Shown in pieces: positions 1 to 5,601 of a stretch of DNA of 64,000 bases. Numbering within the stretch: position 1 is the stretch's first letter; each line of letters opens with the position of its first letter. The stretch is taken from the NCBI GenBank assembly GCA_016927595.1, contig JAFGMI010000041.1, forward strand, positions 1-64,000, in the 5' to 3' direction. The DNA comes from Melioribacteraceae bacterium. Lineage in GTDB: Bacteria > Bacteroidota > Ignavibacteria > Ignavibacteriales > Melioribacteraceae. Both the position numbers and the translations under genes were made by a program. The notes under the pieces were generated by a model. It was not told where the DNA came from and did no database searches. It worked only from the letters and a program-made list of their open reading frames with translations.

Positions 1-420
1 ACCGAATCTGCTTCCAAGATCTTCGATCTGATCATTTGATCTTAAGAAACCGAATCTGCTTCCAAGATCTTCGATCTGATCATTTGACCTTAAAAAACCG
101 AATCTGCTTCCTAAGTTTTCGATTTGTTCATTTGATCTTAAAAATCCGTATCTGCTGCCCAAATCTTCAATCTGGTCATTAGATCTCAGGAAACCATACC
201 TGCTTCCGAGATCTTCAATTTGGTCATTAGACCTCAGGAAACCAAACCTGCTTCCGAGATCTTCAATTTGGTCATTAGATCTGAGAAAACCGAATCTGCT
301 GCCAAGCTCTTCGATTTGTTCATTTGATCTAAGGAAACCATACCTACTACCCAGATCCTCAATCTGAGAGCTGGATTTAAGGTAACCATATCTGCTCCCC
401 AGCTCCCCGAAATGATTGAC
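1..420 (-). repeat. 48-bp coding tandem repeat array (16 amino acids per unit)
   Basis: Eight direct 48-bp units lie head to tail at 1-48, 49-96, 97-144, 145-192, 193-240, 241-288, 289-336 and 337-384, with a degenerate copy at 385-420. There are no spacers and the unit length is a multiple of three, so the reading frame is preserved. The two units nearest the left edge differ at only about three bases, while units nearer the gene start are more diverged. This suggests recent expansion at the C-terminal side. The array continues beyond the window. Confidence 0.95.
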
Positions 421-597
421 AGCAACCAATACGGCTGAATTAGAATTTTCGGAAGAAGCTGCCGGTACAGCAATAACAACATCATTGTTTTCAACTATCT
501 GAAAACGTGATGCTTTTTCAACATTACTTGCTGACTGGGCAACTATTGCGTTAGTCAATATTCCGAATGCCAGTAGAATAAAGAGTTGCTTTTTCAT
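1..597 (-). CDS. Secreted protein made of 16-residue tandem repeats, partial (runs off left edge)
   Basis: An open frame begins with ATG at 595-597 and stays open for all 199 codons to the window edge, so its C-terminus lies outside. A GAGG Shine-Dalgarno precedes the start. Residues 1-21 form a typical signal peptide (MKKQLFILLAFGILTNAIVAQ minus the last residue gives the core), so the protein should be exported. After a spacer of about 40 residues the rest is a perfectly in-register tandem array with consensus SNDQIEDLGSRFGFLR. Eight full copies and one degenerate first copy are visible; F/Y alternates at one position and D/E/S at another. No family is recognised. The regular acidic-hydrophobic-LGSR pattern suggests a repetitive solenoid or surface fibre, but that is inference. 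It is divergent from the ECF sigma gene and could be one of its targets. Confidence 0.85.
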   Translation of the reverse strand, partial: MKKQLFILLAFGILTNAIVAQSASNVEKASRFQIVENNDVVIAVPAASSENSNSAVLVAVNHFGELGSRYGYLKSSSQIEDLGSRYGFLRSNEQIEELGSRFGFLRSNDQIEDLGSRFGFLRSNDQIEDLGSRYGFLRSNDQIEDLGSRYGFLRSNEQIENLGSRFGFLRSNDQIEDLGSRFGFLRSNDQIEDLGSRFG

Positions 598-940
598 TTC
601 TGTCCTCGTTGTTTGTTTATTGTTAGTATTTATTATTTATCAGAGCTTTTCGTACTGAGATCAGCTCCTTATGGATTTTATTAAGCAGGGTGAATTTTGT
701 TATTAACTCGTTGTATTTAATTCTTTCCCAGCTTTTCATAAAAATCAAAATTATTAGCAATCCGAAAAAAGTGTGATTTTAGTAAAAATCCATAATCTGT
801 ACTATACTTAGCAGTTGGGACTAAAATCTGGAATTTTTTTTTCGATGATATTCAGTTACTATCCTTTTATATTAAAATGTCAGTTTTTAATTATATTTCT
901 AATCATTATAAATATTCTGATTTTATTTCACTGAGGCTAA
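598..940. other. Divergent intergenic region between repeat-protein gene and ECF sigma gene
   Basis: This 343-bp AT-rich stretch has no convincing gene. It must hold promoters for both flanking genes. The 11-mer AAAATCCATAA occurs twice, once on the plus strand (785-795, toward the sigma gene) and once on the minus strand (669-679, toward the repeat-protein gene), so each copy faces its own gene. No classical -35/-10 pair could be assigned with confidence. Confidence 0.5.
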
Positions 941-1570
941 ATGAATACTCTTTCGGAAAAAACATTAGTTCAGAAAATTCGAAATAAAGATTCAGCGGCG
1001 GAAAGTGAAATCTACCATTATTATTATCCGAAGGTTAAAATGATAATCGGGACACGGATCAGCGACGGGGATGATCAAAAAGATATTATTAATGATATTA
1101 TGGTTGCTATTATAGTGAATTTAAGGGATGGCAAATTTAATCCGGGAAATGAAAGTACACTAGGGAAATATGTAAACGGTATTATACGGAATCGTTTAAC
1201 CCAATATTTTAAGGATATTTACCAGAAGAGAAATAAAATATCAAACAATCCCGACGGTAATATTGAGAATTTGCCGGATAATGAAAAGTTTGTTCACAAC
1301 ATGGAGAGCAATGAAGAAGAAGAGATTAAAACCGATATTTTGAGAAAAATAATTGAAAACCTGAAACCCAAGTATAGAAAAGTAATTATCCTGCGGTATT
1401 TCGAAAATAAATCAGTTTCAGAAATCAGTAATGAAATGGAGCTGACCGATCAAAAAGTAAGCGATTATCTCAAATATTCGAAACAATTAATATCCAAGGA
1501 ATTAAAAAAAATTAAACATTACAGAATAAGAAAAATTTTTTTCCAGATTTTGTTCCTTTGCTCTAAGTAG
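941..1570 (+). CDS. ECF-type RNA polymerase sigma factor
   Basis: The 209-residue protein has the two-domain layout of extracytoplasmic-function sigma factors. A sigma-70 region 2 (about residues 15-95) includes a DQKDIINDIM-like core helix. After an acidic linker (about 95-130) comes a region 4 helix-turn-helix (about 140-195, LKPKYRKVIILRYFENKSVS followed by EISNEMELTDQKVSDYL). A GAGG Shine-Dalgarno lies five bases before the ATG. The C-terminal tail is unusually basic and hydrophobic. It is followed after 26 bp by a zinc-finger anti-sigma gene, so the two are almost certainly co-transcribed and form a sigma/anti-sigma pair. The ECF subgroup and target promoters cannot be told from the sequence alone. 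Identity as a sigma factor is secure. Confidence 0.92.
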   Translation: MNTLSEKTLVQKIRNKDSAAESEIYHYYYPKVKMIIGTRISDGDDQKDIINDIMVAIIVNLRDGKFNPGNESTLGKYVNGIIRNRLTQYFKDIYQKRNKISNNPDGNIENLPDNEKFVHNMESNEEEEIKTDILRKIIENLKPKYRKVIILRYFENKSVSEISNEMELTDQKVSDYLKYSKQLISKELKKIKHYRIRKIFFQILFLCSK

Positions 1571-1596
1571 AGGGTAGAAAATAAATCGGAATACAT

Positions 1597-2319
1597 ATGA
1601 GCTGCAACATTAAAAACAGAAATGAAATTATTGAAAAATATTTGGGCAGAGAGCTTGATGAAGATGAAATGAATGAGTTTGAAAACCATTTTCTCCAGTG
1701 CGATGAGTGTTTCGAGGAACTCCAGACAACAAAATCTCTGATGGTTTATATGGAAAATGAAGACCCGGCAATTATTGACCGGATGAAAAATGCTTCAAAC
1801 CCTGGGTATTATTCCATACGTGACTCGTTCAATAATCTGTTCGATAAACTGATTTTACCCAGACCTGTTCTGAGTTTTGCAACCGCGGCTGTACTTGCCG
1901 GAGTAATTATTGTAAGTATATTCATAAACGATAATGATATTCGACATGAGGTTATTTCAAGTGATCAAATAGTCCGCGAGTACGGATTACAGAAATATGC
2001 TGACAATTTTGTCGCTGCCCCCGATATGGAAAAATTCATGAATCAAAAATTCAGATCCGGGGATGTTATAGAAATTATAAGCCCTGAAAACGATCTGCTT
2101 GCAGATGGTAAGATTATTTTCGAATGGAAGAAGACTACGGATAAATTGTTAACATTAAAAATTCTGGACAACCGTGAACACACGCTTATAAGCATTTCTC
2201 CGGAATCAGACAAATTTGTACTGAACCCTGTAGAAAAAAATTTGGAACCGGGATTATATTACTGGAAACTTGAAACCGCCGATGAACTGCTTCATCTCGG
2301 CAGATTTTTTATCAAATAA
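1597..2319 (+). CDS. Membrane-anchored zf-HC2-type anti-sigma factor with extracytoplasmic beta domain
   Basis: The 240-residue protein starts with a zinc-binding anti-sigma domain carrying the HxxxCxxC motif (His31, Cys35, Cys38 in HFLQCDEC). This is the fold that clamps ECF sigma factors. One transmembrane helix follows at about 91-110 (VLSFATAAVLAGVIIVSIFI). The remaining 130 residues should lie outside the cytoplasm and include a beta-rich segment (about 155-240) with FEW and GLYYWKLE motifs like those of Ig-like/fibronectin-type sandwiches. It lies 26 bp downstream of the sigma gene and converges with the CHAT protease gene, stop codons only a few bases apart. Release of sigma would require a signal that alters or cleaves this membrane protein. 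The outer domain is the likely sensor (inference). Confidence 0.87.
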   Translation: MSCNIKNRNEIIEKYLGRELDEDEMNEFENHFLQCDECFEELQTTKSLMVYMENEDPAIIDRMKNASNPGYYSIRDSFNNLFDKLILPRPVLSFATAAVLAGVIIVSIFINDNDIRHEVISSDQIVREYGLQKYADNFVAAPDMEKFMNQKFRSGDVIEIISPENDLLADGKIIFEWKKTTDKLLTLKILDNREHTLISISPESDKFVLNPVEKNLEPGLYYWKLETADELLHLGRFFIK

Positions 2320-2324
2320 TAAAT

Positions 2325-5300
2325 TTACTCCCCTATCAAAACAAAACCGCTCCAGTTAAGGGGAAACGAAGTAGCAGGATCGTTTATCATTTTCAGTTTA
2401 GCATCCCTTAAAGATTCTTTGTAAGTTTTTCCGGACAGAATAGCATCATAAAAATTTATCATTAAATTACTGGTACTCTCGTCAAAAACTTTCCACAGCG
2501 ATGTAACAATATTTTTTGCTCCCGAGTATAAAAATCCTCTCGTTAAAGCAATCATGCCCTCGCCTTTAATCAATTTTCCGATTCCGCTCTCACAGCTGCT
2601 CAATACAACAAGATCTGCATTAAGGTCTAAATTGTATATTTCGCCTGAATAGAGAATACCATCTTCTTTACTATCTGAATCATCATCAGGATATAATATA
2701 ATGCCCGAGAGACTCGGTTTTATCGGGTTAACAAAACTGTGAGTTGCAATATGAAGATATTTTGCGTCTGAGATTTGAGTTTTCATCGTTCGTTCATCGG
2801 CATCTTCATGGAAATATCCCGCGGCATATAAATTCTTATCGTCAAAGAGATCAACCAGGATTTCAACTTCCCTTTCTGAGTAAGGCAAAGAACCAAATTC
2901 ATTATTGTTTCTAAAAACACTCCGCAGATTATCGGACGAACCACCGAACTGGAGCACAGCAGCGGAACTCGTTTTTATTCCGGATAGTTTTTCAGCATCA
3001 TCAAAAACCGGGGCAAAACCAACAAATTTTTCCTTTAATTCTTTATGTGAATTGTCATCCATTCCAGATAAGTACAACTCTGCGGAGTAGTGATATGAAA
3101 CTGCATGCTTCTTGATTAAATAATCGAGTGAAGCAAATGTGTAATTATCATTATTGTCCCTGCCTTTGATGAGCGCTTCGAACGGCAGATAATACAAAAT
3201 GCCGTCAGGAATAAATACCAGATTGCGTTTCAAATATTGTTCTATCGGTTTTATCAGGATATCATATAATTTTTGAGACGATTCCACATATTCGGTTTTA
3301 TCAAGTTTTTTTATCGAAGCATAAAACGTCTCGCAAATATTATTGAAAGAAGAATCTATTTCCTGACGCAGCACATGAAATTCCGATCCTGATATTATAT
3401 AGGTAACAAGCGATTTTTGTCCGGCAAAAAACTCTACAACAACCGAATTATCATCCAGAGCCTCTTGAAGTTCATTAATACTGGCTGATTTCCTTCGGTA
3501 TTTAAGCGAATAATATTCCGGGTATTGTGTTTCGAACCTGTTTATCAAATTTATATAATCATCTTTAAGACTGAACAGTCTTTCCCTGAAATTTTCAACC
3601 CTTGCGCTGTCTGTCTCCTCAGTCTCATACAATTCTCTCTGCAGTTCGGTATCATAGAATGCAAGGTCTATTTTAAGATTCTTTTCAAGCTGTATTAATG
3701 AATCGGGTATGCCTGAAAAATATTTTGCGTTTGCCTCCACCAGAGCATCTGAAAGTATTTCCGATTTATTCTGCTCGGCAAATAAAAATGCTTTCTCTTT
3801 ATAACTTTCATCACCCGAAATACCGTACATTTTAAGACTGGCTTGTATTGCTTTTTCGAAAATCCTCGAAGTTCTTTCGGCCAGAAGCAGTTTTGAACCT
3901 TCGGCCTTATAACCTTTCCTTATCTGATCAATCAGTTCCGTTAATACACTATAGTTATTCAATGACGCTTCGAGATCTTTTCTGCTGCCCGAAGAAAATT
4001 GAAATTTCGCAAAAAATATCTCTGCTTGCCGGGCAAGAGTATTAAGCAACTCAAGTTCCGATAATGCTTTATCTATTGGAGGAATGGTATATGGATTTGA
4101 ACTTCTGAAGCCGGGAATATTGGAAGTTACCGCACTTTGCGCACTCTCCACCGCTTTATCAAAACTATTTATTTCAAGGTATGTCGCAGCCAAATTGTTA
4201 TAAGTCTCGGCAATCGCAGGATGCTCGGTTCCATATGTGTTTTTAAGTATGGCAAGCGCATCATTATGATATTTAATTGCTTCTTTATATTTGTGCATAC
4301 TGCGGTTTATATTACCCAGACTGTTATAGGATTGTGCCACATCTGCGTGTTGTTTCCCGAATATTTTTAGTCGTATCGACAATGCCTGCTCATAGTATGA
4401 AACCGCTTTGGGATAATCTGTAAGTGCTTCATAAACACGTCCCATTTCATGATACGACATCGAAACATCGGTGTGAAGTTCTTTTGCGAGTACGTCATAA
4501 TAAATTGAAAGAGCTTTATCGTGGAATGCAAGCGCATTCTGCAACTGCCCCATGTGATAATATGATAATCCCATGTTGTAATAAACTCTGGCAACATCCA
4601 TGTTGTTTTCACCCAAAGTCTTTAAGAGTATATTAAGCGATCTTTGATAAATTGACAAAGCCCTTTCGTGATCGCCGATAACATCTCCGAGCAGTACGGC
4701 CATATTCTGATAATTAAGCGCTACAAAGGGATGGTTTTCACCGTATTTGTTAATTAGTCTTTCCACGTTCCCGCTGTAAATTTCCAGTGCCTTTTCATAA
4801 TCACCTTTCACATGATAAACGATGGCAATGTTGGTAAACAGATCGGTTAGACCGGGTATTGCATCGCTCTCGGCAATTGATCTCAGGTGTGCCGCTTTTT
4901 TAAATTTTGACAGAGCATCCTCGTAATACCCCTCTTCAAAATCAAACATTGCAAGAAGGTTATACGCCTGAACCAGTTCATCACCGAGTTTTATGTTATC
5001 GGAAATGGTAGTCGAATCGATGCCTATTAAAGTTTTGTTTAATAGTTCTCTTCCTTTATTAAAATTTCCCAGGTAATGATACGACGCTCCCATCTCGTTA
5101 TATATACGATATCGTGTAGGACTTTCATTGTTTAATATCTCTGATGCCAGACTATCGGCACGTTTCAACACAATTATTGCGGTGTTGAACTCGCCTTTTT
5201 TACGATAACTGTTCCCTTGTCCGGCAAGACAATAAATATAATCGGACATCTTATTTTGAGTTTGAAAACGCTTTGCAGCGTTTTCGTAAACGACGATGGC

Positions 5301-5462
5301 AGAATCATACTTTGCAGATTTAAAGAGGCTGTCTGCCTGTGAAACCATGTATTCCGCCGATGATGGATTAATTTCTTTCTTATTAACGTTGCATGATTGA
5401 TATAAAATACCGGCAAGTGCAAAAATGGATAATGTAATAAAAACATTTTTCATTTTAATCAT
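2325..5462 (-). CDS. Exported TPR-CHAT domain protease
   Basis: I chose ATG at 5460-5462 because GGGGA lies just upstream; a GTG four codons earlier is possible but less likely. The 1045-residue product has an N-terminal hydrophobic export segment ending in LYQSC (Cys24), an imperfect lipobox, so it is probably a lipoprotein. About residues 35-480 are kinesin-light-chain-like TPR repeats of roughly 42 residues with recurrent YxxAL/H and GxxYxxMGQ patterns. A helical linker leads to a C-terminal CHAT domain (caspase-like clan CD cysteine protease, about 690-1045). The catalytic dyad is visible: His908 in IATHS and Cys957 in VVLSSCESG. The substrate is unknown. The converging neighbour is an anti-sigma factor whose outer domain would be in the same compartment. 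Confidence 0.9.
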   Translation of the reverse strand: MIKMKNVFITLSIFALAGILYQSCNVNKKEINPSSAEYMVSQADSLFKSAKYDSAIVVYENAAKRFQTQNKMSDYIYCLAGQGNSYRKKGEFNTAIIVLKRADSLASEILNNESPTRYRIYNEMGASYHYLGNFNKGRELLNKTLIGIDSTTISDNIKLGDELVQAYNLLAMFDFEEGYYEDALSKFKKAAHLRSIAESDAIPGLTDLFTNIAIVYHVKGDYEKALEIYSGNVERLINKYGENHPFVALNYQNMAVLLGDVIGDHERALSIYQRSLNILLKTLGENNMDVARVYYNMGLSYYHMGQLQNALAFHDKALSIYYDVLAKELHTDVSMSYHEMGRVYEALTDYPKAVSYYEQALSIRLKIFGKQHADVAQSYNSLGNINRSMHKYKEAIKYHNDALAILKNTYGTEHPAIAETYNNLAATYLEINSFDKAVESAQSAVTSNIPGFRSSNPYTIPPIDKALSELELLNTLARQAEIFFAKFQFSSGSRKDLEASLNNYSVLTELIDQIRKGYKAEGSKLLLAERTSRIFEKAIQASLKMYGISGDESYKEKAFLFAEQNKSEILSDALVEANAKYFSGIPDSLIQLEKNLKIDLAFYDTELQRELYETEETDSARVENFRERLFSLKDDYINLINRFETQYPEYYSLKYRRKSASINELQEALDDNSVVVEFFAGQKSLVTYIISGSEFHVLRQEIDSSFNNICETFYASIKKLDKTEYVESSQKLYDILIKPIEQYLKRNLVFIPDGILYYLPFEALIKGRDNNDNYTFASLDYLIKKHAVSYHYSAELYLSGMDDNSHKELKEKFVGFAPVFDDAEKLSGIKTSSAAVLQFGGSSDNLRSVFRNNNEFGSLPYSEREVEILVDLFDDKNLYAAGYFHEDADERTMKTQISDAKYLHIATHSFVNPIKPSLSGIILYPDDDSDSKEDGILYSGEIYNLDLNADLVVLSSCESGIGKLIKGEGMIALTRGFLYSGAKNIVTSLWKVFDESTSNLMINFYDAILSGKTYKESLRDAKLKMINDPATSFPLNWSGFVLIGE

Positions 5463-5601
5463 GCTGTTCCCCACAGATTAAAAATCAACAACGATGGCAG
5501 GTTATTTCTGAAATTTTAATATGCTGTACCTGAACATAATAATATGATTACAGTAATTCCACCTCTTAAAATACTGAACCAATAATAATTTCTAAATTAA
5601 G

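What the first reader, a model, noticed from the sequence alone, without database searches (positions are those of the whole stretch)
1..5462. ECF sigma, transmembrane anti-sigma and exported TPR-CHAT protease, beside a repeat-protein target candidate
The sigma factor and zf-HC2 anti-sigma factor form a pair, and a 1045-residue TPR-CHAT protease converges on them with stop codons a few bases apart. The CHAT catalytic dyad (His908, Cys957) is intact. An export signal places the protease in the same compartment as the outer domain of the anti-sigma factor. CHAT proteases are known to cut specific partner proteins, as in the CRISPR type III-E Craspase, where a TPR-CHAT cuts an inhibitor of an ECF sigma factor. 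Here the set is CRISPR-free. I infer that the CHAT protein acts as a site-1-like protease releasing sigma. A divergent gene encodes a secreted 16-residue-repeat protein that may be a sigma target.
Basis: partly seen in the sequence, partly recalled or inferred. Interest (0 to 1): 0.76.

Follow-up and report, generated by a model that had tools for sequence, protein, structure and literature searches.

The report
Exported caspase-like protease paired with anti-sigma
Next to a gene switch (a sigma factor and its membrane-bound inhibitor) lies the gene of an exported caspase-like protein, and the same trio recurs in several bacterial phyla, so the exported protein probably turns the switch on, perhaps by cutting the inhibitor outside the inner membrane.

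Summary
The genes described are real: a truncated 16-residue-repeat protein, an ECF sigma factor, a transmembrane zf-HC2 anti-sigma factor, and a convergent exported TPR-CHAT protein with intact His/Cys dyad, stop codons 5 bp apart. Of the 79 closest CHAT loci in a genome collection, 67 can be judged: in 24 the next, convergent gene is the anti-sigma factor, in 21 of these followed by a sigma-like gene; four more loci carry it close by. The 28 span six named phyla or candidate phyla. The better-conserved part of the anti-sigma factor is its periplasmic half: a stalk motif with Arg153 (28 of 29), then an Ig-like domain resembling T9SS C-terminal domains. In 395 genomes of the phylum all 6 strong matches to that half lie beside CHAT, though two exceptions turned up in other searches. 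Eleven relatives carry a second arrangement, an operon of sigma, membrane protein and CHAT. The repeat protein is not part of the module. Craspase and Myxococcus DdvA are precedents for linking CHAT with sigma control; a separate exported CHAT partner is the difference. That CHAT cuts the anti-sigma factor is likely but unproven.

The parts
1..597 (-). secreted 16-residue-repeat protein (LGSRxGFLRSNDQIED type), truncated by the contig end; neighbour, not judged part of the module
941..1570 (+). ECF sigma factor, 209 aa
   Evidence: TIGR02937 84.2 bits over cut-off, PF08281 over cut-off
1597..2319 (+). transmembrane anti-sigma factor, 240 aa
1687..1710 (+). zf-HC2 motif H31-x3-C35-x2-C38 of the anti-sigma factor (cytosolic side by topology)
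   Evidence: each of the three residues in 26 of 29 aligned relatives; PF13490
1864..1935 (+). transmembrane helix, residues 90-113
   Evidence: AF2 model; a hydrophobic segment at a like place in the homologues
2008..2058 (+). stalk motif residues 138-154 (F...LE.fin...RS) with nearly invariant Arg153 (2053-2055); candidate cleavage loop (inferred)
   Evidence: R in 28 of 29, E or D at 145 in 29 of 29 of alignment A3; pLDDT dips to about 80 between better-predicted parts
2068..2313 (+). periplasmic Ig-like beta-sandwich, residues 158-239, T9SS-CTD-like
   Evidence: pLDDT about 97; VIA-align Z 8.4 to mirolase CTD 8qb1 and to PorZ 5m11; weak profile matches to T9SS tail families
2325..5474 (-). 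exported TPR-CHAT protease, convergent with the anti-sigma gene
5391..5462 (-). signal sequence MIKMKNVFITLSIFALAGILYQSC, lipoprotein-like by eye
   Evidence: sequence; hydrophobic N-terminus in 23 of 28 linked homologues
4125..5312 (-). TPR array (approx. residues 55-450), kinesin-light-chain-like
   Evidence: PF13424 etc.; profile match to kinesin light chain 1
2328..3284 (-). CHAT domain with catalytic dyad H912 (2739-2741) and C961 (2592-2594)
   Evidence: PF12770; HC dyad in 28 of 28 linked rows

Best explanation
This is a self-contained envelope-signalling cassette. The ECF sigma factor is held by the cytosolic zinc-finger part of the transmembrane anti-sigma factor (established for the family, not shown here). 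On the other side of the membrane the exported TPR-CHAT protein pairs with the anti-sigma factor's periplasmic half. When the TPR part meets its signal (unknown), the CHAT domain most likely cuts the stalk between the short conserved helix and the beta-sandwich, around Arg153 (inferred). Loss of the bulky beta-domain would leave a stub of about 40 residues outside the membrane that an M50 site-2 protease could process, freeing sigma (inferred from RseA/RsiW). Shown: the genes, their conserved pairing, the N-terminal export-like sequence, the intact dyad, the predicted folds. Inferred: cleavage, its place, the order of steps.
For: Conserved convergent pairing in 24 of 67 assessable CHAT loci and four looser ones (21 of the 24 followed by a sigma-like gene). 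In a phylum-wide search all 6 strong matches to the periplasmic half, in 5 of 395 genomes, sit beside CHAT. The periplasmic half is the better-conserved half of the anti-sigma factor while the sigma slot varies. Dyad intact in 28 of 28 linked rows, but also in 49 of 50 unlinked ones. Hydrophobic N-terminus. Arg153 in 28 of 29. Best Foldseek hits of the whole CHAT model by E-value include Csx29, separase and DdvA; Csx29 cuts a sigma inhibitor (PMC10028731, passages read). Two M50 matches in the genome. One CHAT match and four zf-HC2 matches in the genome, so adjacency by chance is unlikely.
Against: No cleavage data. Human separase holds the P1 Arg with D2070, 41 after the catalytic Cys. Counting along, that position is not Asp in any of 78 CHAT rows (one Glu); an Asp 37 after the Cys is kept in 76 and an acid 42 after it in 45, but not in the window. 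No structural alignment was made, and the Csx29 counterpart is a Lys (PMC9729208, passage), so Arg153 as P1 is only a guess. Csx30 is cut in a loop without an essential residue. Arg153 could be structural. L139 has Asn there; G086 has the anti-sigma factor with its nearest CHAT about 10 kb away; L127 about 7 kb away. 50 of 78 CHAT rows are unlinked, some only because the contig ends. In L075 and L107 the membrane protein has another periplasmic part.
Confidence: 0.5

Rival explanations
1. CHAT regulates the anti-sigma factor by binding, not cutting: the TPR-CHAT protein is a sensor that grips the beta-domain and changes the anti-sigma factor's hold on sigma, as a split version of DdvA.
For: PDB entries 8rot/8rw5, titled transmembrane anti-sigma factor DdvA, hold a chain named CHAT domain-containing protein. 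The conserved residues of the periplasmic half could all be binding contacts.
Against: Catalytic His and Cys are kept in 28 of 28 linked rows, which a pure binding role does not need.
Confidence: 0.22
2. CHAT is the output, not the trigger: sigma controls CHAT expression, or the beta-domain acts as a securin-like inhibitor of an exported effector protease with other substrates.
For: Separase relatives are held by inhibitors (PMC9729208, passage); the convergent gene order allows separate control; effectors are often encoded beside their regulators (general knowledge).
Against: Comparing window and G002 by eye, short identical blocks upstream of sigma have no evident counterpart upstream of CHAT (a weak test). 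The strong matches to the periplasmic half occur with CHAT, which a mere target gene would not require, though inhibition would.
Confidence: 0.18
3. The repeat protein is the substrate or target of the module.
For: Divergent neighbour in window and G002; its repeats contain an RS pair as the stalk motif does; a repeat fragment lies about 13 kb from a CHAT gene in G022.
Against: Elsewhere the family is apart from CHAT in genomes that hold both: G004, G019, G028, G035, G037.
Confidence: 0.06
4. Chance neighbours.
For: None beyond the possibility.
Against: Recurrence in six named phyla or candidate phyla and in a second gene order.
Confidence: 0.02

Closest known systems
Craspase (type III-E CRISPR): Csx29 TPR-CHAT, Csx30, CASP-sigma
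   Same: TPR-CHAT architecture (Foldseek best hit 8eey, E 1.9e-13, TM 0.41 on the query) and a CHAT protease set against an inhibitor of an ECF sigma factor (PMC10028731, passages)
   Different: Here CHAT is exported, the inhibitor is a transmembrane zf-HC2 protein, and the immediate neighbours are not cas genes
DdvA/DdvS of Myxococcus xanthus
   Same: A transmembrane anti-sigma factor of an ECF sigma factor with a CHAT part (8rot/8rw5; DdvS/DdvA passages in PMC4374960). The CHAT-domain sequence match is weak (E 0.0064) and the whole-chain TM-score low (0.21)
   Different: One polypeptide there, as the PDB names suggest; two genes here, with a separate T9SS-CTD-like domain on the anti-sigma factor. 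The structure paper is not held
RseA/DegS/RseP and RsiW regulated proteolysis
   Same: Transmembrane anti-sigma factor of an ECF sigma factor; M50 matches present
   Different: The candidate site-1 protease would be a clan CD cysteine protease, not a PDZ serine protease
T9SS C-terminal domains and their sortase PorU
   Same: The periplasmic domain resembles T9SS CTDs in fold and weakly in sequence; PorU is a clan CD cysteine protease that cuts just before the CTD (recalled)
   Different: The anti-sigma factor is anchored in the inner membrane and CHAT is not PorU
CalpL/CalpT/CalpS (type III CRISPR)
   Same: A protease that frees a sigma factor by cutting its anti-sigma factor (recalled; only the listing of PMC11417357 seen)
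   Different: A SAVED/Lon-type protease in the cytosol (recalled)

Membership tests
ECF sigma factor | sigma70-ECF profile over curated cut-off | tested here: met
   TIGR02937 84.2 vs 42.9 bits; PF08281 over cut-off
zf-HC2 anti-sigma factor | HxxxCxxC zinc motif plus profile | tested here: met
   motif present; PF13490 21.0 bits, under 22.2; 23.8, over it: borderline
zf-HC2 anti-sigma factor | binds and inhibits the neighbouring sigma factor | not testable with these tools
   needs a bench assay
CHAT protease (PF12770) | CHAT profile and His/Cys dyad | tested here: met
   207 bits vs 24; H912, C961
CHAT protease (PF12770) | proteolytic activity | not testable with these tools
   no assay
Craspase (type III-E) | gene beside Cas7-11, Csx30, Csx31 | tested here: not met
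   immediate neighbours are sigma, zf-HC2 protein, OPT transporter, subtilase; the rest of the window and genome was not searched for cas genes
DdvA-type fused anti-sigma factor | anti-sigma domain, TM helix and CHAT in one chain | tested here: not met
   two separate genes on opposite strands
T9SS cargo with C-terminal sorting domain | TIGR04183 or PF18962 over cut-off in the window protein | tested here: not met
   no such match for the window protein at E 0.1; PF18962 at E<=0.01 in 2 of 29 relatives; TIGR04183 22.5 vs 23 bits in one relative
Regulated intramembrane proteolysis substrate | single TM helix with a periplasmic domain removed by a site-1 protease, then M50 cleavage | tested here: inconclusive
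   topology fits, M50 matches present; cleavage not testable

The most novel reading that the evidence does not exclude
A widespread, undescribed class of envelope signalling in which exported separase-like TPR-CHAT proteases act in trans as dedicated site-1 proteases of transmembrane anti-sigma factors, cutting a conserved loop before a T9SS-CTD-like domain, with sigma partners exchanged freely (canonical ECF, forms without a recognisable region 4, once an LRR protein). Fused DdvA, the operon form with mostly membrane-anchored CHAT, and RNA-guided Craspase would be variants of one CHAT/ECF-sigma theme.
Probability: 0.35. Interest if true: 0.8.

Novelty: new variant of a known kind. Interest (0 to 1): 0.62.

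Why it matters
Most CHAT proteins have no known substrate (general knowledge). A conserved partner with a conserved loop that could be the cut site gives a concrete substrate to test in dozens of loci, would add a cysteine protease to the list of site-1 proteases, and would suggest where Craspase's protease-sigma logic came from.

Tried and rejected
Repeat protein as part of the module: rejected, with the G022 fragment as the one result pointing the other way. OPT transporter and subtilase as part of it: genes of like length and N-terminus recur in the same order in G002; none was seen by eye in the other convergent loci, so taken as genus synteny. Shared sigma promoter: window against G002, upstream of sigma and of CHAT, by eye; no conclusion. 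P1-Arg specificity by analogy with separase: undecided. Sequence search of the CHAT domain against the PDB gave only 8rot. A screen of loci for tandem-repeat proteins stopped with an error part-way and was not repeated. Families absent from the VIA-align list are not excluded.

Selections: one search kept the best 80 of 300 related stretches; one search was given 32 of the 69 CHAT frames listed plus the window; L075 was left out of alignment A3 because its periplasmic part does not align, and L127, not adjacent to CHAT, was kept in. The sigma and anti-sigma labels come from comparisons with, or profiles built on, the window and a few of these very loci; searches are the independent checks. One search drew 395 genomes from a larger group and scored 12 candidates a genome.

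Papers: searches. For CHAT with sigma or anti-sigma terms the listings gave Craspase papers, a CalpL paper and two papers on other matters by title and abstract; one search listed none, one such paper. So the exported pairing was not found in the held library, which lacks most subscription papers. Passages read: PMC10028731, PMC9729208, PMC12609080, PMC4374960. Two papers, one sought for the DdvA structure and one for a fungal separase structure, are not held.
Full report
What is there. The window is the first 64 kb of contig C47. From its left end run a secreted protein of 16-residue repeats cut by the contig end, an ECF sigma factor, a transmembrane zf-HC2 anti-sigma factor, and on the other strand a TPR-CHAT protein whose stop lies 5 bp from that of the anti-sigma gene. 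The CHAT protein begins with what reads as a lipoprotein-like signal sequence and has an intact His/Cys dyad. The genome has one CHAT match, four zf-HC2 matches and 21 sigma region-4 matches, 19 of them over the cut-off.

Is the pairing conserved? In relatives (38 other genomes) the closest CHAT homologues, in G002, G019, G035 and G001, all have a convergent anti-sigma gene; the next, in G033, does not. A search with the anti-sigma protein over 164 genomes of the order, the own one included, matched 20. I fetched wider surroundings for 13 of the 19 others. Eight keep the convergent pair: G001, G002, G019, G035, G042, G079, G096, G107. G013 keeps a fragment of the anti-sigma gene beside a CHAT remnant with internal stops. 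G086 has the anti-sigma gene with a CHAT about 10 kb away on the same contig. G072 and G137 match only through the zinc-finger half and show no CHAT in the 7-10 kb fetched. The G106 match was weak and not resolved. The six not fetched wider (G040, G059, G073, G075, G097, G100) matched only through the zinc-finger half and neighbouring residues.

Wider, a genome-collection scan with an alignment of nine CHAT proteins found 300 related stretches and returned the best as 79 loci. One had no CHAT frame called and 11 have under 700 bases past the CHAT stop. Of the remaining 67, 24 have the anti-sigma gene as the next, convergent gene, and in 21 of these a sigma-like gene follows. L103, L117 and L124 have it convergent one or two frames on, and L095 has it upstream on the same strand, cut by the contig end. 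The 28 come from records named Ignavibacteriota or Ignavibacteria (7), Bacteroidota (9), KSB1 (3), Calditrichota (2), Aminicenantes (2), Neomarinimicrobiota (2) and unplaced (3). On a tree of 78 CHAT rows the linked label is clustered (12 changes against 23.2 in shuffles, 0 of 500 as low) but needs at least 7 changes on well-supported branches. Some of the 50 unlinked rows are only cut off by contig ends; 32 of them fall on one branch (support 88), mostly Bacteroidota.

What is conserved in the anti-sigma factor. The three zinc residues are each kept in 26 of 29 rows. The periplasmic half is kept better: Glu or Asp at 145 in 29, Arg153 in 28, Pro163 in 28, Asn192 in 28, Tyr221 and Tyr222 in 29 (alignment A3; another alignment, A5, gives 28 at position 145). 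The model (pLDDT 85) shows helix 142-148, a loop, then a beta-sandwich from 158. Fold comparison gives alpha-2-macroglobulin domains on top (Z 9.3) and, at Z 7.7-8.4, T9SS C-terminal domains (8qb1, 5m11, 8glk); such Z values are common for Ig-like folds. Weak sequence signals also point to T9SS tails, and in five other proteins the weak matches include a C-terminus that looks like a T9SS tail by eye. In 395 genomes of the phylum the profile of this half had 12 matches at E 1e-5: 6 strong ones in 5 genomes and 6 weak ones. All six strong ones lie in sigma / anti-sigma / CHAT clusters. Exceptions from other searches are G086 and L127, where CHAT lies about 10 and 7 kb away. So this domain goes, as a rule, with CHAT.

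The sigma slot. It holds a clear ECF sigma factor in the window and several loci and divergent ones in others (L056 and L063 match region 4 only weakly). In L055, L061, L092, L096, L111, L121 and L132 the protein matches only the N-terminal part of the sigma profile, to position 76-131 of 165. L124 had no match at E 0.01. In L057/L094, the same contig, the slot holds an LRR protein.

A second arrangement. In the order, 11 of 19 further CHAT loci have an operon of ECF sigma factor, a membrane protein with a TPR-like outer part, and a CHAT protein, mostly with a C-terminal membrane helix (the middle-gene profile was built on two of the eleven). The dyad is intact in 11 of 11; in L189 CHAT is split. 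Eight of the 19 have no such pair, one of them (L070) cut by the contig end; L073 has only a sigma-like gene near. That the middle protein is an anti-sigma factor is inferred from its place.

How it may work. CHAT of Csx29 cuts Csx30, an inhibitor of an ECF sigma factor (PMC10028731). DdvA, an anti-sigma factor according to its PDB title, comes with a chain named CHAT domain-containing protein. Here the CHAT partner is separate and exported and meets the anti-sigma factor outside the inner membrane. The simplest model is removal of the beta-domain by a cut in the loop at 149-156, followed by an M50 protease, of which the genome has two matches. The T9SS sortase PorU, a clan CD protease, cuts just before CTDs (recalled), a suggestive parallel. 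A P1-Arg rule is not supported: the separase pocket Asp (D2070, 41 after the Cys) has no Asp at the same count in 78 rows, though an Asp 37 after the Cys is kept in 76 and an acid 42 after it in 45, not the window; counting is not a structural alignment.

The repeat protein. Its family occurs in 11 of 39 genomes searched, the own one included. In G035 it lies about 615 kb from the convergent CHAT cluster, in G037 about 590 kb from CHAT; in G004, G019 and G028 it is on other contigs. In G022 a fragment sits at the end of the CHAT contig, about 13 kb off, and the full copy elsewhere. Only in the window and G002 is it the divergent neighbour. It is therefore not a member of the conserved set.

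Verdict. Observation confirmed; module shown by conservation; protease-on-anti-sigma mechanism likely but untested; repeat target not supported. New variant of a known kind.

Noticed in passing
L068, L069, L177-L183, L188, L189: Operon of ECF sigma, membrane protein with TPR-like outer part, and TPR-CHAT mostly with a C-terminal membrane helix: a second sigma/CHAT arrangement in the order.
   Followed up: partly
L055:5398-6153; sigma slots of L061, L092, L096, L111, L121, L132: Sigma-like proteins that match only the N-terminal part of the ECF profile, with an unknown C-terminal part where region 4 would be.
   Followed up: partly
L057:12849-14468: An LRR protein of 539 aa takes the place of the sigma factor upstream of the anti-sigma gene.
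   Followed up: no
window 1-597 and L193 (end of G000:C6): Both contigs end inside the same 16-residue repeat array, so C47 and C6 are probably neighbours; the G002 contig ends in the same kind of array.
   Followed up: partly
L060:5594-6234: Decayed pair: anti-sigma fragment beside a CHAT remnant with internal stops.
   Followed up: partly
L151, L106: Tandem runs of three (L151) and four (L106) TPR-CHAT genes in Bacteroidota loci, with no sigma pair in the frames shown.
   Followed up: no
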